Source: Mycolicibacter hiberniae (lineage in GTDB: Bacteria > Actinomycetota > Actinomycetes > Mycobacteriales > Mycobacteriaceae). Taken from it: DNA of 64,000 bases. The stretch lies in contig NZ_AP022609.1 in assembly GCF_010729485.1 (NCBI RefSeq), positions 3,596,001 to 3,660,000 of the forward strand, in the 5' to 3' direction. A program made the translations under genes and the position numbers. The notes under the pieces were generated by a model. The model saw only the letters and a program-made list of their open reading frames with translations. It did no database searches and had not been told where the DNA came from. Each line of letters opens with the position of its first letter. Position 1 is the first letter of the stretch. Of this stretch, positions 10,222-25,520 are shown one piece after another.

Positions 10222-10615
10222 GCGGTTAGATTAATGTCTCGGGTCCGGCGGGTGCGCAGATTATTTGCGCGCGGGGGCGCTGGGCAGCGGCGTTCACGCC
10301 GGGCTTGCTTGCCGCACGCAGCCGATCCATCGGCTGCGGCCGCCTCGGTCCGCCGGTGATCCGCAGGCGAAATCCGGTACTGCACTAAGGAACTCATTCG
10401 GCTGTCCACCAAGGGGCTATGCCCCATCCGGCGACGACCACGGGCGCCAGGCCCGCCTTGCGGTGGGGGCGACGTTCTGGGCGGTCGGGACCAACACATC
10501 GGTTTCGCTCCCGCCCCACCAGCACCGGGGCCAACCAAACAGCCCGGGCGTTTACCCACCCGGTGACGGTATCCCTGGCTTAGCCTGGACCGAGATCGAA
10601 CCACAGGAGGAAGTA
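10222..10615. other. Intergenic stretch without a supported gene
   Basis: 394 bases between the GNAT gene and the glyoxalase-fold gene. Open frames exist on both strands but none shows family motifs or a convincing start. The only parts I can place are the leaderless -10 of the GNAT gene (TAATCT, minus strand, 10228-10233) and the AGGAGG ribosome site before 10616. The inner part has several GC-rich inverted repeats that could be decayed sequence. Confidence 0.4.
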
Positions 10616-10969
10616 GTGAGCGACCACGACATCCGGATGATCGTCTTGTCCACCGACAACCTGGACGAATCGATCAAGTTCTACAGCGAGACCCTGGGCA
10701 TGCCGCTGAAGTTTCGCGACGGGGCGCACTTCGCCGCCCTTGACGGCGGTTCGGTGACCCTGGCTCTGGCGACCGCGGTCGACCACCCCATCCACGGGCA
10801 GGTGGTGGTCGGCATCAAGACCGACGACGTCGACGGTGCGGCAAAGGCCATCGAAGCCAGCGGCGGCGGCATTGTGAAAGGCCCCTACGACGATGCCCAT
10901 GAGCGTCGGGCCGTGGTCTACGACAACAAGGGCAACGGACTGGTTTTCTATAAGCCGTTGGCGCGGTAG
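10616..10969 (+). CDS. Glyoxalase/bleomycin-resistance-fold (VOC) protein
   Basis: 117-residue single vicinal-oxygen-chelate domain. Pattern: IRMIVLSTDNLDESIKFY at the N-terminus, YSETLGMPLKF, then a second beta-alpha-beta half ending with YDDAHERRAVVYDNKGNGL, where the late acidic/His positions usually lie. GTG at 10616 follows AGGAGGAAGTA and is chosen over an upstream in-frame extension that has no ribosome site and no family similarity. One VOC module implies a dimer. Substrate unknown. Confidence 0.85.
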   Translation: MSDHDIRMIVLSTDNLDESIKFYSETLGMPLKFRDGAHFAALDGGSVTLALATAVDHPIHGQVVVGIKTDDVDGAAKAIEASGGGIVKGPYDDAHERRAVVYDNKGNGLVFYKPLAR

Positions 10970-11027: not shown

Positions 11028-11033
11028 TAACAT
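11028..11033 (+). promoter_or_regulatory. Leaderless-type -10 of small-protein family member 1
   Basis: TAACAT followed by CCGGATT (7 bases) and the GTG start at 11041. The same module TAnnAT-CCGCACT-GTG/ATG recurs before members 2, 3, 5 (diverged) and the short ORF at 15161. Confidence 0.6.
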
Positions 11034-11040
11034 CCGGATT

Positions 11041-11529
11041 GTGACGATGACACCGCCACCGTGGCCTGCGCCGCCGCCCGCCCAGTCACGGGGGCGGTCA
11101 ACAGCGATAGTTGCGGTGGTTGCTGCGTTGTTGGCCGCAGCCGCGTTGATAGTGGCAGTTGTTTCTCTGACCCGATCGGCGCCGGCCGCACTACCGGGTT
11201 TCACATCAGCACAGAAGGCCGATGCGAAGGACCGGCTCTGCGCTCGTTACAAGCTTGCAGCCAACGCGGAGCACATCGAGACGAACACGTCCAATAACAT
11301 TGCGCTCGCGCGCCTCTCGGCAACCAATGGTGCACTGATCCTTGAGACGGCTGCGATGGACCCCGCCTTGGACCTCCAGTACCGCGACGCGGCAAAAGCT
11401 CTGGCACTCAGTTATCAGACTCTCGTCGCCGTGGCCACTGGCAGCGAGGAGGATGACCCGCAGCTAGGTGCAGCGATCAACGACGCGAACGCTAAAGTTC
11501 GCGTGATGCATGAGCTCTGCGGCGATTAA
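11041..11529 (+). CDS. Small Pro-rich membrane-anchored two-cysteine protein, family member 1
   Basis: 162 residues, an unnamed mycobacterial family often labelled alanine/proline-rich membrane protein. Layout: N-terminal Pro-rich cytosolic tail (MTMTPPPWPAPPP), one transmembrane helix at about residues 22-45 (AIVAVVAALLAAAALIVAVV), then an exported domain of about 110 residues with LCARYKLA near residue 63, LARLSATNGALILETAA, DAAKALALSY and a C-terminal LCGD. Two cysteines, one in LC..Y and one in the last four residues, recur throughout the family and probably form a disulfide. No function known. First of a tandem array. Confidence 0.75.
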   Translation: MTMTPPPWPAPPPAQSRGRSTAIVAVVAALLAAAALIVAVVSLTRSAPAALPGFTSAQKADAKDRLCARYKLAANAEHIETNTSNNIALARLSATNGALILETAAMDPALDLQYRDAAKALALSYQTLVAVATGSEEDDPQLGAAINDANAKVRVMHELCGD

Positions 11530-11612
11530 TCCAGCGCCCCAGGTCTCTGTAATTGCGCTGGCGACTAAACGCGGTTCTAGCCCGGATGTAAACGCAGAAT
11601 CGCGTCGCGGGC

Positions 11613-11618
11613 TACCAT
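11613..11618 (+). promoter_or_regulatory. Leaderless-type -10 of family member 2
   Basis: TACCAT, then CCGCACT (7 bases), then GTG at 11626. Confidence 0.6.
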
Positions 11619-11625
11619 CCGCACT

Positions 11626-12111
11626 GTGACGATGACACCACCGCCTTGGCCCGCGCCGCCGCCTGGTCGACCCAGTGGCCGGCCGATCGCCGCGCTAACC
11701 ATCGGCCTTATCGCCACCGCTGTAGTGGCTATAGCGGGCGTTCTCATTAGCCTCAACCGGCCCGCCCCGCCCGTGGCCACGTACTCCACCGGCGAGAGGG
11801 CTGCGGCAAAAGTACAGTTCTGCGAGAGATACCGACTGGCTGTTCGCGCTTCCCAAATCGATACAGCCCCAGGCGGCGAGATTGCTTTGGCGCGTATTGC
11901 CATGGTCAATGGTGCCCAGATACTCGAAACGGCGGTTGCCGATCCATCGCTTGACGCCAGTCTCCGCGACGCTGGACAAGCGTTGGCACTGTCCTTCCAA
12001 ACCCAGGCAGCATTGGCCAGCATCGAAACCGGCATGTCGGCGACATGGCAGCAAATAGTTGACGACACGAACGCTAAAGATCGAGCGGTGAAGGCGCTGT
12101 GCGGTGAGTGA
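11626..12111 (+). CDS. Small Pro-rich membrane-anchored two-cysteine protein, family member 2
   Basis: 161 residues, same layout as the preceding gene: MTMTPPPWPAPPPG tail, transmembrane helix about 24-47 (IGLIATAVVAIAGVLISL), FCERYRLA, LARIAMVNGAQILETAVADP, and final LCGE. Its first seven codons are almost identical to those of member 1, whereas the exported part has diverged far more, so the N-terminus and promoter look like the conserved part of the cassette. 96 bases separate it from member 1, with an independent promoter. Function unknown. Confidence 0.75.
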   Translation: MTMTPPPWPAPPPGRPSGRPIAALTIGLIATAVVAIAGVLISLNRPAPPVATYSTGERAAAKVQFCERYRLAVRASQIDTAPGGEIALARIAMVNGAQILETAVADPSLDASLRDAGQALALSFQTQAALASIETGMSATWQQIVDDTNAKDRAVKALCGE

Positions 12112-12181
12112 GCACATAGATGGCCAGCTACGGCAGGTCGTGTAATGAGCAGTTCTCGGCTCCGGCGCCGGCACATCGAGT

Positions 12182-12187
12182 TACGAT
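12182..12187 (+). promoter_or_regulatory. Leaderless-type -10 of family member 3
   Basis: TACGAT, then CCGCGAT (7 bases), then GTG at 12195. The module is intact although the gene it serves is frameshifted. Confidence 0.55.
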
Positions 12188-12194
12188 CCGCGAT

Positions 12195-12670
12195 GTGAGC
12201 GTCTCGCCGCAGCCCTGGTCTGCAGCGCCACCAGCGCCCCCGCCCCGCCAGCTGGGTATCGTTTTCCCCTACTCAGTACCGCCTTGACGGTGGTGGCCCT
12301 GGTGGTAGCCGTCGCGGCATTTGCCCGGGCTACGCCCCGCCCGACTTATACCGCTGCAGAGAAGGCGGCAGCTGGGGAAAAGCTATGCAACCAGTACAAA
12401 CTCGCGGGGCGCGCTGCGCACGTCGAAACCCGAGCCGACGGGGATACCGCACTGGCGAGGATTTCCATGGTCAACGGAGCGCTCATCCTTGAGACTGCCG
12501 CCTCAGACCCGGCCATAGACTCAAAATACCGCGAAGCCGCCCGCGAACTGGCGGATTCCTACCGAACAATGGCAGCTTCAGGCAGCATTGGCGGTCCGGA
12601 CGAATACCAGGATCTGATTAACATCACGAACGCCAAGTTATCAACAATGAAATCCCTGTGCGGCGACTGA
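12195..12670 (+). pseudogene. Family member 3, frameshifted after the Pro-rich tail
   Basis: GTG at 12195 opens a family-like tail (VSVSPQPWSAAPPAPPP) but this frame stops at about 12285. The rest of the protein (transmembrane LTVVALVVAVAAF, LCNQYKLA, LARISMVNGALILETAASDP, final LCGD) continues in the frame one base back, to 12670. The switch falls in or just after the C-rich tract at about 12233-12249. Loss of one base there would explain it. Alternatives: sequencing error in the tract, slippage-based phase variation, or a start at TTG 12284 giving a 128-residue form with no cytosolic tail. The downstream frame shows no other damage, which favours a recent or reversible event. Confidence 0.65.
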
Positions 12671-12762
12671 GCGAACCAGCCGCCCACGCCGCGTGGACCA
12701 GGATTTCTTCAGCCGCGCTGCGCGCCACCAAATGAACGTGAGCGCGGTGCCCGGGCGCAGTC

Positions 12763-12768
12763 TATATT
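12763..12768 (+). promoter_or_regulatory. Leaderless-type -10 of family member 4
   Basis: TATATT, then CGCGAC (6 bases), then GTG at 12775. No Shine-Dalgarno sequence is present. Confidence 0.55.
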
Positions 12769-12774
12769 CGCGAC

Positions 12775-13254
12775 GTGAACACGAATTCGCCGCATTTGCC
12801 TGCATCACTTCCCCCCGCCCGCGCGGGGCGCCCGGCCATAGCGCTCGCGGCGTTAGCGGTCCTGATTTCAGCCACGGCATTGATGGTCGCGCTCACCCGG
12901 CCGTCAGAAGGTGCGGAGCGGCCCTTCACGGCTACTCAGAGGGCTGACGCGAAGGACCATCTCTGCCGCAGTTACAGGCTGGCAGCCCACGCGGAACATA
13001 TCGAGACCAATATGCCGGACAACGCAGCACTCGGGCGTCTGTCTGCTACCAATGGCGCATTGATCCTTCAAACTGCCGCAGCCGACCCAGCTGTTGAAAC
13101 CAAATATCGCGATGCAGCCCGCAACCTCGCACTCAGCTATCAAAAGCTCGTTGCGATTGCTACCGGTAGAAACGCTAATGACCCGGAAATCACTGATGCG
13201 ATCGCGGACGCGAACGCCAAAGACAGAGTGATGGTGGAGCTGTGTGGAGAGTGA
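12775..13254 (+). CDS. Small membrane-anchored two-cysteine protein, family member 4
   Basis: 159 residues. The tail here is MNTNSPHLPASLPPARAG rather than the PPPW type; the transmembrane helix follows at about 20-42 (AIALAALAVLISATALMVAL). Exported part closest to member 1: LCRSYRLAAHAEHIETN, LGRLSATNGALILQTAAADP, DAARNLALSYQKLVA, final LCGE. It is likely a duplicate of the member 1 lineage with a replaced N-terminus. Function unknown. Confidence 0.75.
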   Translation: MNTNSPHLPASLPPARAGRPAIALAALAVLISATALMVALTRPSEGAERPFTATQRADAKDHLCRSYRLAAHAEHIETNMPDNAALGRLSATNGALILQTAAADPAVETKYRDAARNLALSYQKLVAIATGRNANDPEITDAIADANAKDRVMVELCGE

Positions 13255-13639
13255 CGCCACTTAACGGCCAATCGGCCTTCGCCAGGGCTACGCTTCTGTT
13301 GATCGGCGCAACGCGCTAATCGCAATCGACGCTTCTGGCGGGATCCCGCTGTAGACCGCACGCGCCGACAGACGCTAACACGCCATGCCGGAGGTTGATC
13401 TCCTGACGGTTGCCTTAATTGTAGAGAGCAGTACGTGGCCTCAGTTGACGACATGAACGCCAAGGACCTGGTCATGCTGCGGATATGCGGCAGGTAGCCA
13501 AGGCGTATCTGGCAGGTATCGAATTCCTCAAAATACAATAGCGGGGTTTGCAGACCACTCGTTCGAGCTTAACCCTGATAGGTGCCGGCACTAAAGCGGC
13601 CGCCCCTTCCTAGCAAGGGGCGGCGATACCCTCCGAAAG
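13255..13639. other. Gap in the tandem array holding a decayed family copy
   Basis: 385 bases between members 4 and 5. The only recognisable coding trace is the C-terminal fragment at 13435-13497. The rest carries no homology I can see, but its length is close to what an extra family member would occupy. Confidence 0.5.
13435..13497 (+). pseudogene. C-terminal remnant of a further family member
   Basis: Frame reading VDDMNAKDLVMLRICGR then TAG. It aligns with family C-termini such as INDANAKVRVMHELCGD and IADANAKDRVMVELCGE, keeping the terminal cysteine. Nothing of the membrane helix or LC..Y segment is recognisable upstream, so this is what remains after deletion or decay of a complete copy. 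Confidence 0.65.
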
Positions 13640-14122
13640 GTGACCATGTTGCCGCCCTCCTGGCCTGAGACGTCCCCCGTTTGTGCGCACAGCCGGTCCA
13701 CACTGCTAGTACAGACCTTCACGGTGATCATTTCGTTGGCCGCGCTTACCCTGGGAATTGTGGCGGTCAATCGGCCCTCTTCCTCACCTGCCTACACCGA
13801 GGCGCATAGAGCTGCGGCGCTGTCGATGCTTTGCGAGCGATACAGGCTTGCCGCCGAGAGCGTGAAAATTGAGACGACGACCCCCGACAACGCTGCTTTG
13901 GCGCGAATTGCTCTAACAAACGGTGCCGTTATGCTCGAGACCGCTGGAGCAGACCCTGCACTCGACGCATCCGTGCGTGATGCTGTTCGTGAACTGGCGC
14001 TGGGGTACCAGGATTTAACGGCGATGGGAACCGCCGGCATTGTGAATGAATCTCAGTTCGAGTCCCGCATGGACGCCGTCAATGACAAAAATCGCGTGCT
14101 GAAGGAGGTCTGCAGACGGTGA
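13640..14122 (+). CDS. Small membrane-anchored two-cysteine protein, family member 5
   Basis: 160 residues. Tail MTMLPPSWPETSP, transmembrane helix about 25-46 (TVIISLAALTLGIVAV), LCERYRLAAESVKIETT, LARIALTNGAVMLETAGADP, DAVRELALGYQ, and a C-terminal VCRR. Here the LCG motif is altered but the cysteine is kept. TACCCT at 13627 lies seven bases before the GTG start, so the leaderless layout holds; AAAGG directly abuts the start and is too close to act as a ribosome site. Function unknown. Confidence 0.75.
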   Translation: MTMLPPSWPETSPVCAHSRSTLLVQTFTVIISLAALTLGIVAVNRPSSSPAYTEAHRAAALSMLCERYRLAAESVKIETTTPDNAALARIALTNGAVMLETAGADPALDASVRDAVRELALGYQDLTAMGTAGIVNESQFESRMDAVNDKNRVLKEVCRR

Positions 14123-14385
14123 TCGGCGCCCAACGGACTGGTACGTCACCTACGCCACTTCAAGCAGGTTCACTGAACGGAGCGAGGCTAAACAGCCGGG
14201 CGGCCCTCATTTCCAGCGACAGGCGGCGCTGTTCGAATACCGCGCGGTGCTCGGCATCGCAGCGGGAACAAAGTCGGTGATCGACAATCTCCCGGTGTAG
14301 ATAGGTATAGGGTCGGGCCAAAGGTGGGATCAGGCTTCTCGGAGACAACGATGGCGCTCGTCGTGGCTATGGAAGGGCTTCCCGC

Positions 14386-14871
14386 ATGACTTCCAAACTG
14401 GCCCTTAGCGCTACACCGCCCCATGAGATTGCGCCGCCCCACCGGTCGTCACGCCTTCTCATCCCAATTCTCGTTGCACTTTCGGTTTCCGCTTTGGTCG
14501 TGGCAATCGTGGCGCTAGTCCGGCCAACCCAACCTTTGACTTCCGTTCATACGGAGCAGCAACGCATCGCCGCGAAGGCACACCTGTGCGAGACGTACAG
14601 CCTCGCGGCGGACGCTGAGCACGTTGAAACCAACGGCGACGACCCCGCTTTGGCACGCATTTCACTGGTGAACGGGGCCGGCATGCTCGAATCGGCGACT
14701 TCTGACCCTGCGCTCGAGGCCGAATATGGCGCCGCTGCAAAAGCGCTGGCGCAGTCGTATCGGGCGATGGCAGCCGGAGCGTCACTGGGCTCTGAAGACT
14801 CCGTGTATAAGTCGGCACTCAAAGCTGTGATTGCCCAAGAGAGCGTGCTGAAGCTTTTTTGCGGGCAGTGA
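14386..14871 (+). CDS. Small membrane-anchored two-cysteine protein, family member 6
   Basis: 161 residues. Tail MTSKLALSATPPHEIAPPH, transmembrane helix about 26-48 (LLIPILVALSVSALVVAIVAL), LCETYSLAADAEHVETN, LARISLVNGAGMLESATSDP, AAAKALAQSYRAMA, and C-terminal FCGQ. Unlike the others it lacks the TAnnnT box directly before the start; instead GGAAGG lies nine bases upstream of the ATG, so it is probably translated from a leadered mRNA. Upstream, 14123-14385 shows no gene. Confidence 0.75.
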   Translation: MTSKLALSATPPHEIAPPHRSSRLLIPILVALSVSALVVAIVALVRPTQPLTSVHTEQQRIAAKAHLCETYSLAADAEHVETNGDDPALARISLVNGAGMLESATSDPALEAEYGAAAKALAQSYRAMAAGASLGSEDSVYKSALKAVIAQESVLKLFCGQ

Positions 14872-15147
14872 ACTGATTTTTCGCCGGCATCTTTGAACCA
14901 GCCCTTGGCGTCGCGTGCCGTTGGTCGCGGTGGCGTCCCCCGCGGTCAGCCGCTTTAGGGCTAGGCCGTCCGCATCCGACGGAGGCCTGTGGGTGGCCGC
15001 CCCCGCAGGCCCCACACATAGCGTTTGCCTGTCGGTACTTCCATCCCCGCTGCACATAGGGCGGATCCACGAGCCCACCTGGGGCTAGCAAATTTCGCGC
15101 GCAGACCCTGCAGTCACACGATGTAAGCGAGAATTCGGCAGGAAGAT

Positions 15148-15153
15148 TAACAT
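15148..15153 (+). promoter_or_regulatory. Leaderless-type -10 before the short ORF and EspK-like gene
   Basis: TAACAT, then CCGCACT, then ATG at 15161. The 13 bases TAACATCCGCACT match the modules of family members 1 and 2 almost exactly, so the small-protein promoter cassette also drives the following operon. Confidence 0.6.
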
Positions 15154-15160
15154 CCGCACT

Positions 15161-15307
15161 ATGGCCACCCCAGAACCGGACCGGCTGGCAACGTCGGATG
15201 TCCCTCCCCGGCGCGACGGGCGCGGCTTAACTCTCAGTGGGTATGTGGCTTCGGCCGCTGCGGCTAACGCCGAAGAGCGCAACCCGAAAGCTTCCTGCTG
15301 TGACTGA
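15161..15307 (+). CDS. Short leader-like ORF overlapping the EspK-like gene
   Basis: 48 residues: Pro/Arg-rich N-terminus (MATPEPDRLATSDVPP), an Ala-rich middle (YVASAAAANAEE) and a CCD terminus. It starts at the position where the family cassette places the start codon, and its stop overlaps the GTG at 15300 of the next gene by eight bases in another frame, an arrangement that allows translational coupling. It may be a real small protein, a leader peptide, or the N-terminal stub of a family member fused to foreign sequence. No homologue recognised. Confidence 0.45.
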   Translation: MATPEPDRLATSDVPPRRDGRGLTLSGYVASAAAANAEERNPKASCCD

Positions 15308-17654
15308 TCTACCCCCCGGCAAATGGTCGACTTACCTAGTTGGAGCGTGGTGGCCCGCGCCTCCAACCGAGGTGACTAACAGTGTCCAGCACTGGTCGTT
15401 TCAGTCGAGCGCTAAGGAGCAGGAGGCCGTCGAACTCCAGTCTTTTACGCAGAGCGTTAGCGCTAGGAACAGCGGGCTGACGACCGAAGACGAGTTGATT
15501 CGCCTCCGAATCGGCTACAACCGTCTTGCGAGCGCCGCTGAGCACTGTCGCAGCAAGAGCGTCGCGTGCGACAGCGTCGCCAGGGCCGTTATCGAACTGC
15601 GCCGAAATCTGACCAACGTCGCCAACCGCTATAACCCGCTCATCGACAACCTGGTAGCGAAGAACACCCCCGAGTCGCTAGCCGAAGCTGTCAGTCTCAC
15701 CTCCGACGCCAATGCCGAATCTGGCAAGCACAGTGCCGATGCCATCAGCAAGATCACGGCGGCCACCGAGCAAATGTTCGTAGATTTGGGCATCGAGGGG
15801 GAAGCCCAGCGATGGTTGCAAGACAACGGCGCAAAGATGACTCCGGAGAGCTCCCCCATACCCTCCAGCGACGAATTGGTCAGAGCAGCTGCTGGGACGT
15901 CGGATCTTCCTTTTCCGTTCGGTACCGGAGACATGAACGATCACGCCGAGACCAGCGGGCTACCGTTCCCGTTCGGCATGCTGGAGCGGTCAAACACATC
16001 AAAACCTGCTGACAGCAGCAGTTTAGAGTCGAGTGCCTACGACGTCAGCCGAACACCCGCCACACTCGATAACAGCGGAGGCGTAGTTGGCGGAACCGGC
16101 ACCAAAGGAACACCCACCCCACCCGCCACCAGTGCCATAACAGCCGGCGGAATCGGCACCAAAGGAACACCCACCCCACCCGCCACCAGTGCCATAACAG
16201 CCGGCGGAATCGGCACCAAAGGAACACCCACCCCACCCGCCACCAGTGCCACAGCAGCCGGCGGAACCGACATAGGTCCGCCGCCCTTGTCCACCCCCGG
16301 CGCTCCCACCCCCGGCGTAACGGGCGGCATCACTTCCGGGGGCGCCATGCCGCCGCCCATGGCCTCTGCCATGCCGGGCGTCGGCGCCCCTGGCGGCTCG
16401 CCTGAGGGTGCGATGTCGCCCGGGCTTGCCACCGGCGGGCAAGCCCAGGCGTTTGCGTCGGGCATGCCCGGCGGTCCATCGGGACCCGGCGGGTCGCCCC
16501 CGCCGCTGCCGCCCGGCGGACCCGGGCCGGCAGGCCTGGGCCAACCGCCGCAGCTTCCACCCTCCCCGCCGGTGACACCGATGGCAGGCGGTGCGCTGGG
16601 CAACCTGGCCCAACTGGCCACTTCAGGCGCCGAGGCCGCCCCTGCGGCCCCGGCCGGGAGCTCTGCCCCGCTACCGCCGGCGGCGCCACCGCCGGTCACA
16701 GCCGGCTCGGCCGCCGTACCGGCGGGGCCGTTTGCCGCCGCCCCGGTAGCCCCGTCGGGACCGTTGCCCGGCTACGGCGCGGACCTGCGCCCGGCCGCCG
16801 CGGCGATCCCCACCACACCCACCGCGCCTGCGGGACCGGCCGGTCCAGCGGTCCAGCCGGCGCCCGGTAGCGCGCCTGCACCGGGTGGTCCGGCCGTGGC
16901 CCCCTCCGGCAGGCCCAGCGGTGTCGGCGGGCAGTCCGGCGCATCGGTGGCCGGCGGGATTGCCGCCGGCAGCACCGCCGGAGCCGGGGCCGGCACCGCC
17001 GCTCGGCGCCTGGCCGAGCACCAGGATCTGCAGCGCAAAGTCGACGCCGTGGCCCGCCAGGCTCCGCACCTGGCCTGGGCGGTCGGCCTGCGCGACGACG
17101 AGACCACCGTCGTAGTCGCGACCGACCTGGCCGGCGGCTGGATTCCGCCGACCGTCCTACTCCCCCAAGGGTTGACGCTGCTGGATCCCGCCCAGCGCCG
17201 CCGCGACACCGGCGCGGTTGATCTGCTGGGTGCCGTGATCGCAGCCGTTGCCCACCACCCGAATACCTACGTCGGCGAGGCGGGACCCGAGGACCCGATT
17301 CCCGGAAGCGGGGAGCGTGCTCGCTTCGGCCACCACGTCGAGGAACTCGGCCCCACTCTGATCGATCTCGCGACAACCAACAGCCGCCTGCCCCGGATCG
17401 TGCAGACCGTCGCGCGCGCCGTCGCCCGCCGATCCGGGGTCGCGGACAACGAGATCGAGCTGTTTCGGCAGGTCCTGACCGACACCGAGGCGCGCATCAA
17501 GGCGTCCTACCCGCACCATGCGCCCCGAGACGTAACCGACTGGATGTTGTTGGCGGCCATCGACGCCCTGATCGACGGGAGTCAAGAACTGGCCGGCTAC
17601 CACCTGGCCTGGTACCAGGCCACCGCGGTGCGACCGGGAGGGGTAACGCCATGA
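15300..17654 (+). CDS. EspK-like Pro/Gly-rich ESX-associated protein
   Basis: 784 residues from GTG 15300 (an in-frame ATG at 15237 exists but overlaps the short ORF and adds unrelated residues). Three parts: (1) residues 1-220, helical, beginning DLPPGKWSTYLVGAWWPAPP, resembling the N-terminal helical domains of ESX-secreted Esp proteins; (2) residues about 265-560, low-complexity Pro/Gly/Ala linker including three 19-residue repeats; (3) residues about 560-784, a folded domain (DLQRKVDAVARQAPHLAWAV, TVVVATDLAGGWIPP, VLLPQGLTLLDPAQ) like the DUF5632/DUF5631 C-terminal region of EspK (Rv3879c). Role in type VII secretion is inferred. No ESX core gene is in the window. Part 1 is clearly lower in GC than part 3, so the gene may be chimeric. 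Confidence 0.65.
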   Translation: MTDLPPGKWSTYLVGAWWPAPPTEVTNSVQHWSFQSSAKEQEAVELQSFTQSVSARNSGLTTEDELIRLRIGYNRLASAAEHCRSKSVACDSVARAVIELRRNLTNVANRYNPLIDNLVAKNTPESLAEAVSLTSDANAESGKHSADAISKITAATEQMFVDLGIEGEAQRWLQDNGAKMTPESSPIPSSDELVRAAAGTSDLPFPFGTGDMNDHAETSGLPFPFGMLERSNTSKPADSSSLESSAYDVSRTPATLDNSGGVVGGTGTKGTPTPPATSAITAGGIGTKGTPTPPATSAITAGGIGTKGTPTPPATSATAAGGTDIGPPPLSTPGAPTPGVTGGITSGGAMPPPMASAMPGVGAPGGSPEGAMSPGLATGGQAQAFASGMPGGPSGPGGSPPPLPPGGPGPAGLGQPPQLPPSPPVTPMAGGALGNLAQLATSGAEAAPAAPAGSSAPLPPAAPPPVTAGSAAVPAGPFAAAPVAPSGPLPGYGADLRPAAAAIPTTPTAPAGPAGPAVQPAPGSAPAPGGPAVAPSGRPSGVGGQSGASVAGGIAAGSTAGAGAGTAARRLAEHQDLQRKVDAVARQAPHLAWAVGLRDDETTVVVATDLAGGWIPPTVLLPQGLTLLDPAQRRRDTGAVDLLGAVIAAVAHHPNTYVGEAGPEDPIPGSGERARFGHHVEELGPTLIDLATTNSRLPRIVQTVARAVARRSGVADNEIELFRQVLTDTEARIKASYPHHAPRDVTDWMLLAAIDALIDGSQELAGYHLAWYQATAVRPGGVTP
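16092..16262 (+). repeat. Three tandem 57-bp repeats inside the EspK-like gene
   Basis: Units begin at 16092, 16149 and 16206, followed by a degenerate start at 16263. Each encodes GIGTKGTPTPPATSAITAG or a near variant, in frame. The units are almost identical at DNA level, so the number is likely to vary between strains. They lie at the border between the lower-GC N-terminal part and the very GC-rich linker. Confidence 0.9.
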
Positions 17655-18604
17655 CCGATGACTTCGTTCGGCATTACGGCGAGGATTTCTTGCGCATCGC
17701 ACTGTCGCGTCCCCCAGCGGCTATCCCGCCGGGCCCGGTCCATCCCGGCGGGTCATCGCCCGTGGATGCCACGATGGCGGCCTTCGGGGCCGCGACCAAC
17801 CTGAACCTGGTCGAGACCAACACCGGACTCGCCGAAGACCACGCGGACCGCGCCGGCCACGCCGCCGACGCTGCGCAAAAGTTCGCCAACCACGAGGCCG
17901 ACGCGGCGGCGCGATTTCGCAGCGTCGCCGCCGAAGCCGGCCCCGCGATGGCCGGGCAGGGACCGCAGGAGTCCATGGGCGGGGCCATGCAGGGCGTCAC
18001 CAGTGCCATGCAGGGCATTACCGGAGCGCTCGGCGGGGCACTCGGCGCCGTGGGCAAACTGCCGCAGGAGCTGATGCAGGCCGGTCAAGGAGCGTTGTCG
18101 CCGCTGATGAGCGCGGCGCAGTCGTTGAGCAAAGGCGGGCTTGGCGGCGCCACATTGGCTTCCGACTTCGATGCCGATCCCGGGTTGGAAGGCGGTGGCT
18201 TCGGCTCCGGAGGAACCGGCGGCGGGCTGGGCGCGGGCACCACGCCGGCCAGCAACCTGGGCCCGCCCCCGGTTCCGGGAACGTCGGCGCCCACTACCCC
18301 CACCGGCTCCCTGCGCGGCACGACAATGGCCGGGCCGGCAGGCGGCGCTCCGGCAACGGGTGGGGCCGGCGGCGGAATGATGCCGATGATGCCCGGCGGG
18401 GCAGGTGCCGGCGCAAAGGGCAAAGAGGACAAGACCGACGCGAAGCGTATTGCCGCTCCCGGCGTGCCGAACGGTCAACCCGTCAAGGGCCGCACCACAG
18501 CTCCGCCCAATGTTCCGGTGACCAAGTCCGTCGCCAAAGACGTCGGACATCCCGGCATCACGCCACTCAAACGCATTGTCGACAAGGACGATTCAGCGAC
18601 GTGA
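17651..18604 (+). CDS. ESX-associated-like protein with helical N-terminus and Gly/Pro-rich tail
   Basis: 317 residues, overlapping the EspK-like gene by ATGA. Residues about 40-100 are Ala-rich amphipathic helices (NTGLAEDHADRAGHAADAAQKF) of the type seen in EspC/EspF-like and other type VII substrates; 100-170 are Gly/Met/Gln-rich (AMQGVTSAMQGITGALGG); the rest is disordered, with GGGMMPMMPGGAGAGAKGK and a basic C-terminus (DAKRIAAPGVPNGQPVKGR). The PMMPGG and KR-rich end recall C-termini of ESX-1-associated proteins. Tight coupling with the upstream gene suggests that the two products act together. Function unproven; could also be a cytosolic partner. Confidence 0.55.
   Translation: MTDDFVRHYGEDFLRIALSRPPAAIPPGPVHPGGSSPVDATMAAFGAATNLNLVETNTGLAEDHADRAGHAADAAQKFANHEADAAARFRSVAAEAGPAMAGQGPQESMGGAMQGVTSAMQGITGALGGALGAVGKLPQELMQAGQGALSPLMSAAQSLSKGGLGGATLASDFDADPGLEGGGFGSGGTGGGLGAGTTPASNLGPPPVPGTSAPTTPTGSLRGTTMAGPAGGAPATGGAGGGMMPMMPGGAGAGAKGKEDKTDAKRIAAPGVPNGQPVKGRTTAPPNVPVTKSVAKDVGHPGITPLKRIVDKDDSAT

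Positions 18605-18624: not shown

Positions 18625-25520
<6,896 letters not shown>

What the first reader, a model, noticed from the sequence alone, without database searches (positions are those of the whole stretch)
11028..15160. Tandem array of small two-cysteine membrane proteins, each with its own copied leaderless start module
Five intact genes (11041, 11626, 12775, 13640, 14386), one frameshifted (12195) and one remnant (13435) share a Pro-rich tail, one membrane helix, an exported domain and two conserved cysteines. Before five of them, and before the ORF at 15161, a TAnnnT box lies 6 or 7 bases ahead of the start codon, often with CCGCACT or a close variant in between. Promoter and start codon thus appear to travel with the gene as a cassette, giving each copy independent expression. 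Exported domains diverge more than N-termini. This looks like an expanding, rapidly changing surface-protein family next to type VII-linked genes; no function is known to me.
Basis: partly seen in the sequence, partly recalled or inferred. Interest (0 to 1): 0.75.

Follow-up and report, generated by a model that had tools for sequence, protein, structure and literature searches.

The report
Variable exported protein heading EspK-like operons
The array is a set of old duplicates of a small membrane-protein gene that in related mycobacteria is the first gene of an operon with a type VII secretion chaperone-like gene, and in several of those relatives the outward-facing part of the protein looks as if it had been exchanged by recombination.

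Summary
Window 11041-15307 holds five intact copies, one frameshifted copy, one remnant and, I argue, an eighth, internally deleted copy (ORF 15161) of a small two-cysteine membrane protein; six starts lie 6-7 bases behind a TAnnnT box. No Pfam, NCBIfam or PADLOC model names the small protein. In related genomes this gene is the head of a translationally coupled operon: small gene, EspK-like chaperone (DUF5632/DUF5631), EspJ-like gene; the window operon appears to start at 15161. In four other arrays the repeat unit is small gene plus an EspK-like piece. Start mode is clade-specific: 57 of 94 members carry the leaderless box, 31 a Shine-Dalgarno-like site. That exported domains diverge more than N-termini is false in the window and in most arrays tested, but true in 3 of 11. 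In some pairs of relatives the exported domain is saturated at synonymous sites beside a near-identical EspK-like gene, which points to recombinational replacement. The window copies are old paralogues under birth and death, not a recent expansion. Function is inferred: a membrane partner of an EspK-type secretion pathway with a diversified outward domain; an immunity array is the main rival.

The parts
11041..11529 (+). family copy 1 (intact, 162 aa): Pro-rich tail, membrane helix, exported domain with Cys67 and Cys160
   Evidence: best window match of 22 fetched proteins of other genomes at >=60% identity
11028..11033 (+). TAACAT box, 7 bases before GTG 11041
11626..12111 (+). family copy 2 (intact, 161 aa)
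11613..11618 (+). TACCAT box, spacer CCGCACT, before GTG 11626
12195..12670 (+). family copy 3, broken: start and Pro-rich part in one frame, helix and exported part (12284-12670) in another
12182..12187 (+). TACGAT box before GTG 12195
12775..13254 (+). family copy 4 (intact, 159 aa)
12763..12768 (+). TATATT box, 6 bases before GTG 12775
13441..13491 (+). 3' remnant of a family copy (last ~17 codons recognisable)
   Evidence: tblastn with copies 1, 2 and 4, E 0.003-0.013
13640..14122 (+). family copy 5 (intact, 160 aa)
13627..13632 (+). TACCCT box before GTG 13640
14386..14871 (+). family copy 6 (intact, 161 aa); no TAnnnT box and no strong Shine-Dalgarno site at its ATG (GGAAGG lies 9 bases upstream)
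15148..15153 (+). TAACAT box, spacer CCGCACT, before ATG 15161; inferred promoter of the operon below
15161..15307 (+). 48-codon ORF, read as an internally deleted family copy that keeps the start module and the 3' end overlapping the EspK-like start
   Evidence: not supported by DNA similarity alone
15300..17654 (+). EspK-like gene: N-domain, long Pro/Ala/Gly linker, DUF5632 (17013-17261) and DUF5631 (17337-17621)
   Evidence: Pfam; phmmer to 5imu, named in PMC9811218 as Rv3899c 184-410, E 2.2e-64
17651..18604 (+). EspJ-like gene (317 aa; the label is my recollection), start overlaps the EspK-like stop by 4 bases
   Evidence: 68 homologous ORFs in 79 related loci

Best explanation
The array is made of old tandem duplicates of the first gene of a three-gene coupled operon: small membrane protein, EspK-like chaperone, EspJ-like protein. 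Shown: the family, the operon order, overlapping stops and starts, the start modules, the anatomy of other arrays, and in several relatives a mosaic in which the exported four-helix domain differs far more than the DNA on either side. Inferred: the inner tail and helix dock on the conserved EspK-like/T7SS side; the outward domain, held by a disulfide between the two invariant cysteines, meets a variable partner outside; new versions arise by homologous recombination between copies through conserved 5' and 3' ends. Extra copies upstream are spare versions that are used, exchanged or lost.
For: Synteny: 31 of 69 full DUF5631 matches (28 of 35 genomes with DUF5631, of 60 searched) have a family gene upstream on the same strand; the nearest is 1841-2469 bp away in 30 of 31, i.e. 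directly before the EspK-like gene (nine partial DUF5631 matches left out). 36 of 40 named EspK-like loci hold a family hit in a flank of at most 2.3 kb; three of the four misses are cut by contig ends. Stop/start overlap in three other genomes and M. heraklionensis. Units of small gene plus EspK-like piece in M. lacus, M. attenuatum, G026 and G045. Replacement: in the G045 array identity is 0.84-0.96 from -60 to +240 and 0.45-0.54 over the next 360 bases, synonymous distance 0.06-0.25 against 1.6 or more. M. attenuatum vs M. gastri: synonymous difference 0.70 in the exported domain, 0.32 in the anchor, 0.13 and 0.10 in the EspK-like N- and C-domains; L084 vs L082: 0.72 exported, 0.30 and 0.35. 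23 of 31 pairs with EspK-like C-domain >=0.90 identical have exported domains <0.70.
Against: No contact between the proteins is shown. Constant 5' part with variable exported part holds in 3 of 11 arrays, and in one of these (G009) the 5' synonymous distance is 0.73, so constraint rather than exchange may explain it. Over 31 close pairs the anchor varies as much as the exported domain (medians 0.59 and 0.61). A disordered EspK linker segment varies at least as much: in two of three pairs it, not the small gene, is the densest block of differences. Covariation of exported domain and EspK-like N-domain beyond phylogeny is weak (partial r 0.175, 9 of 999 permutations). The window array shows neither exchange nor EspK pieces. 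35 of 98 family hits are not near DUF5631. PDB fold matches are only generic four-helix bundles.
Confidence: 0.48

Rival explanations
1. Immunity array: the small proteins are membrane immunity proteins against polymorphic type VII (or other) toxins of competitors, kept as strings of non-identical copies like esaG, tipC or tsaI of firmicutes; the EspK-like gene is only a neighbour.
For: Strings of non-identical paralogues next to a T7SS-type gene, in some arrays a conserved 5' membrane part with a variable rest as reported for TsaI, and partner-gene pieces between copies (PMC9484751 passages).
Against: The gene is tied to an EspK-like gene even as a single copy. No toxin domain is recognised by Pfam in the EspJ-like protein (one sub-threshold TrbL match, E 0.23). 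The exported domain can change while the EspK-like N-domain does not.
Confidence: 0.22
2. Surface variation: the exported domain is a phage- or host-facing domain that is varied to escape recognition; the link to EspK is only shared transcription.
For: Outward-facing domain differs while neighbours are conserved in some clades. PMC4770551 (passage) lists Rv3901c and Rv2081c as lineage-specific diversity hotspots, but their membership in this family was not shown here.
Against: Exposure beyond the inner membrane is not shown. The coupling to EspK-like genes is widely conserved, which escape alone does not explain.
Confidence: 0.15
3. Ordinary birth and death: a dispensable membrane gene duplicates and decays; the mosaic reflects comparison of different old paralogues that sit next to EspK after deletions, without selection for variety.
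For: Three of eight window copies are broken; window copies are old and unevenly kept; dN/dS is below 1 in the pairs printed; the anchor often varies as much as the exported part.
Against: The sharp change at +240 inside G045 genes, with synonymous distance 0.06-0.25 on one side and 1.6 or more on the other, needs recombination within genes; the family is kept as operon head in 36 of 40 named EspK-like loci.
Confidence: 0.15

Closest known systems
EspK (Rv3879c) and relatives Rv3899c, Rv2082, Rv0029 (DUF5632/DUF5631)
   Same: The window gene 15300-17654 has DUF5632 and DUF5631 and matches 5imu at E 2.2e-64; PMC9811218 (passages) shows that EspK's C-domain holds EspB and resembles Rv3899c, Rv2082 and Rv0029.
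   Different: That is the partner gene, not the array protein. No WXG100 match lies in the window, and EspB binding is untested.
Rv3901c-Rv3900c-Rv3899c of the tuberculosis complex
   Same: PMC7283319 (one passage) calls rv3899c-rv3900c an interrupted coding sequence, intact in M. canettii, M. kansasii and M. marinum, i.e. one EspK-like gene; by gene order that I recall, Rv3901c lies where the small gene should be. Proteins named M. canettii belong to the family (P0157, P0172).
   Different: M. tuberculosis sequence was not returned by the search, so homology of Rv3901c or Rv2081c is a lead, not a test.
T7SS immunity arrays esaG / tipC / tsaI of firmicutes (PMC9484751, passages)
   Same: Tandem non-identical copies, conserved blocks with variable rest, recombination between paralogues (esaG, tipC), partner-gene fragments in the array (tsaI).
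   Different: Here the array gene is first in a chaperone-like operon, no toxin gene is recognised, and there is one membrane helix with a two-cysteine exported domain.
Leaderless genes of mycobacteria (PMC3898074, passages)
   Same: TANNNT box just ahead of the start codon; 22-26% of expressed M. tuberculosis genes are leaderless there.
   Different: Leaderless starts are rare among type VII genes there (4 of 52) and absent from 49 expressed PE/PPE genes; in this family one group has Shine-Dalgarno-like sites instead.

Membership tests
EspK-like (DUF5632/DUF5631) for 15300-17654 | C-terminal DUF5632 and DUF5631 | tested here: met
   Pfam E 9.8e-32 and 1.5e-35, over cut-off; 5imu E 2.2e-64
EspK-like (DUF5632/DUF5631) for 15300-17654 | N-domain with WxG-type motif joined by a low-complexity linker | tested here: inconclusive
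   N-domain and Pro/Ala/Gly linker present by sequence and found in related loci; no structure compared
EspK proper | lies in an ESX cluster beside its client EspB | tested here: not met
   none of the 23 WXG100 matches of the genome lies in the window; filed as EspK-like only
EspK proper | binds an EspB-type client | not testable with these tools
   no complex prediction or binding assay available
T7SS immunity arrays | tandem non-identical paralogues with conserved blocks and recombination | tested here: met
   in relatives; not in the window array itself
T7SS immunity arrays | adjacent toxin gene with recognisable toxin domain | tested here: inconclusive
   none seen by Pfam in the EspK-like or EspJ-like proteins; unknown domains cannot be excluded
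T7SS immunity arrays | neutralises a cognate toxin | not testable with these tools
   needs a bench assay
Leaderless genes | TANNNT box 6-7 bases before the start codon, beyond chance | tested here: met
   52 of 72 family hits, about 2 expected from 308 candidate starts; but 6 of 38 in the named set
Leaderless genes | transcription start at the first base of the start codon | not testable with these tools
   no RNA data held
Pfam / NCBIfam / PADLOC families | curated model that names the small protein | tested here: not met
   no match over cut-off, none in PADLOC at E 0.1; of 75 members scanned, seven families match one member each, best E 0.00059. One of 108 fetched proteins, P0075, bears a precomputed label PF27150, which one search did not reproduce

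The most novel reading that the evidence does not exclude
Mycobacteria have a recombination-driven exported-domain exchange system at the head of EspK-type type VII chaperone operons: a promoter-tail-helix module, leaderless in several clades, carries interchangeable four-helix outward domains, with tandem arrays of small-gene plus EspK pieces as stock, and the exchanged domain sets specificity towards competitors, phages or hosts.
Probability: 0.22. Interest if true: 0.8.

Novelty: new variant of a known kind. Interest (0 to 1): 0.56.

Why it matters
To my knowledge the clients of EspK-type chaperones outside ESX-1, including the Rv3899c/Rv2082-type operons, are unknown. A conserved, coupled membrane partner whose outward domain is often replaced gives these operons a testable role and suggests what the diversity is for. 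It also bears on why genes at such loci were reported as diversity hotspots in tuberculosis genomes, if those are the same family.

Tried and rejected
DNA alignment of ORF 15161 with window copies: not above shuffles. EspK remnants between window copies: none found by tblastn at E 1. Structure of the small protein: confident model (mean pLDDT 86), but only generic four-helix bundles match; Borrelia surface proteins among them were not used as evidence. EspJ-like protein: low-confidence model (pLDDT 60.8), no match at E 0.001. A strict cognate-pair model for exported domain and EspK-like N-domain: weak and contradicted by some pairs. In one search the profiles of L043 and the window are alignment artefacts and were dropped; those of L039 and L047 show no sharp step. 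Defence models: none. Family outside the genus group: 8 genomes in 3 other genera of 151 genomes searched, several matches partial; that search scored at most 24 candidates a genome and missed G011, which one search had found. DUF2563 lies elsewhere in the genome. M. tuberculosis sequence by name: not returned. Papers: searches listed nothing whose title or abstract start describes this array or the domain exchange; that is a statement about those listings only. PMC3064675 gave one table entry, not used.
Full report
WHAT IS THERE. The window is G000:C1:3596001-3660000 of a complete 4,396,654-bp genome. Between a glyoxalase-type gene (10265-10969) and a carboxyltransferase gene on the other strand (18625-20178) lie five intact copies of a 159-162 aa protein, one copy broken by a frameshift, one 3' remnant and, I argue, an internally deleted copy at 15161. 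No curated model names the small protein (P0075's precomputed label PF27150 was not reproduced). The AlphaFold2 model (75 sequences, mean pLDDT 86) has a helix 19-45, by its sequence the membrane helix, then four helices 56-80, 87-105, 112-132, 140-160; Cys67 and Cys160 are invariant in 75 sequences. Export of the C-terminal part and the disulfide are inferred from the charge pattern and the paired cysteines.

START MODULES. A TAnnnT box ends 7 bases before five starts and 6 before one; 14386 has none. Chance for any ATG/GTG in the window is 24 of 3655. In 41 loci of the window and relatives, 52 of 72 family hits have such a box at some in-frame start against about 2 expected from 308 candidate starts, and against 26 of 390 other large open frames of the same loci, which are not verified genes. 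Against a universal module: among 40 named loci fetched by the EspK-like gene, only 6 of 38 hits have it. Of all 110 hits, 94 remain after dropping five loci of genomes seen twice and hits without an N-terminus: 57 have the box, 31 a Shine-Dalgarno-like site instead, 6 neither. The mode therefore differs between groups. In M. tuberculosis 22-26% of expressed genes are leaderless, but only 4 of 52 type VII genes (PMC3898074, passages).

THE OPERON. The ORF behind the array carries DUF5632 and DUF5631 and matches PDB 5imu at E 2.2e-64; PMC9811218 (passages) names 5imu as Rv3899c(184-410), the best structural match of the EspB-binding domain of EspK. 47 of 60 genomes of the genus group have the family. 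Of 69 full DUF5631 matches in 35 of the 60, 31 have family genes upstream on the same strand, the nearest 1841-2469 bp away in 30 and 3036 bp in one (nine partial DUF5631 rows left out). Many of the other 38 appear to be a second, Rv0029-like type near the replication origin; that is my reading of their positions. 36 of 40 named loci hold a family hit. In M. lacus, G046 and G059 the EspK-like start overlaps the stop of the small gene, and in M. heraklionensis the end reads TGC GGT GAC TGA with the GTG inside it. In the window the same place reads TGC TGT GAC TGA at the end of the 48-codon ORF 15161, whose box lies before the same CCGCACT spacer as that of copy 2. The EspK-like stop overlaps the next start by four bases. 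That third gene has 68 homologous ORFs in 79 related loci; its model shows a helical front and a disordered rest; the label EspJ-like is recollection of the ESX-1 neighbour and was not tested.

ARRAY ANATOMY. In M. lacus (G029), M. attenuatum (G057), G026 and G045, small genes are followed by longer or shorter EspK-like pieces, though not every small gene has one. In M. attenuatum and G026 the last unit has all three genes; in M. lacus all parts are there but the EspK-like frame is interrupted; in G045 the EspJ-like match lies upstream of the array. In M. lacus several truncated EspK-like pieces end at about the same DUF5631 position and one runs in frame into a small gene (863-codon ORF). In the window no EspK-like piece remains between copies.

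DIVERGENCE. In the window the N-terminal part and helix are 32% and the exported part 46% identical on average, with synonymous distances above 1.4 or saturated in the exported part. Each copy is the best match of proteins from other genomes at 60% identity or more: 22, 4, 5, 4, 7 and 2 proteins for copies 1, 2, 3, 4, 5, 6, out of 224 compared, the window's own six entries left out. This is an old family under birth and death. Of 11 arrays compared, 3 show the reverse pattern (M. lacus 86% and 70%, G045 91% and 49%, G009 92% and 36% for 5' and exported part); the other eight do not. In G045 the 5' part is also close at synonymous sites (0.06-0.25 against 1.6 or more); in G009 it is not (0.73), so there constraint may explain it. 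In G045 and G009 identity falls at +240, to 0.45-0.54 and 0.37-0.57 over the next 240-360 bases. Single-copy counterparts show it too: G024 against G004, anchor 0.97 and exported 0.40. In that group the variable block runs from about +230 to +1600, through the EspK-like N-domain and linker, with conserved DNA on both sides, in 6 of 7 pairs; G024-G053 is milder. In others the EspK-like N-domain is conserved between two variable blocks: M. attenuatum (L111) against M. gastri (L112) has 0.88-0.92 at the start, 0.58-0.73 in the exported part, 0.90-0.99 in the N-domain, 0.41-0.63 at +1080 to +1350 in the linker, mostly above 0.9 after; synonymous difference 0.32, 0.70, 0.13 and 0.10 for anchor, exported, N- and C-domain. 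Differences are clustered in each of three pairs (0 of 1000 permutations), but the densest block is the linker in two and the small gene in one. Over 31 non-duplicate pairs with C-domain identity of 0.90 or more, medians are anchor 0.59, exported 0.61, N-domain 0.83, C-domain 0.92, so the constant anchor is a feature of some clades and the whole small gene is variable in others. Saturated synonymous distance in one stretch next to small distance on its sides is best explained by recombinational replacement.

HOW IT PROBABLY WORKS. Shown: operon head, coupling, modules, mosaic. Inferred: the inner tail and helix stay compatible with the EspK-like chaperone or the secretion machine, while the outward domain meets something that changes: a competitor, a phage or a secreted effector. 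The T7SS immunity arrays of firmicutes (PMC9484751, 12 of 24 passages) are the nearest known pattern. I keep immunity as a rival because the gene is tied to an EspK-like gene even in single copy and no toxin domain is seen.

LINK TO TUBERCULOSIS GENOMES. PMC7283319 (one passage) states that rv3899c-rv3900c is an interrupted gene intact in M. canettii, M. kansasii and M. marinum. By recalled gene order Rv3901c would be the small gene. PMC4770551 (passage) names Rv3901c and Rv2081c as lineage-specific diversity hotspots, and PMC6558051 (passages) puts Rv2081c and Rv2082 in the 99th percentile of diversity. I could not compare these sequences, so the link is a lead.

Noticed in passing
L038:11186-11734 (genome 3920185-3920733), also L052 in M. 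heraklionensis: A distant single relative of the family (182 aa, leaderless-type box, E 3.4e-7) lies between genes that look to me like DprE1/DprE2 and arabinosyltransferases and a long PE_PGRS-like ORF; in the window's genome its nearest DUF5631 match is about 35 kb away.
   Followed up: partly
L039:9326-11917 (M. lacus): An 863-codon open frame runs from an EspK-like gene with truncated DUF5631 straight into a family gene, whose leaderless-type box lies inside the EspK-like frame.
   Followed up: partly
L058, L059, L066, L048: In these loci an EspJ-like gene lies upstream of the small gene instead of downstream of the EspK-like gene.
   Followed up: no
window 16092-16265: The EspK-like linker holds three near-perfect 19-residue tandem repeats (GTKGTPTPPATSAITAGGI type); a linker segment is also a hypervariable block between close species.
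   Followed up: partly
G029 (M. lacus), G057 (M. attenuatum), M. gastri (L094, L109, L112): These genomes carry more DUF5631 matches (10 in G029 including pieces, 4 in G057) or EspK-like loci (3 in M. gastri) than the two per genome that is usual.
   Followed up: no
G102, G149, G184 (genus group g19): Single weaker matches to the family outside the window's genus group (best E 6.9e-14); their surroundings were not read.
   Followed up: no
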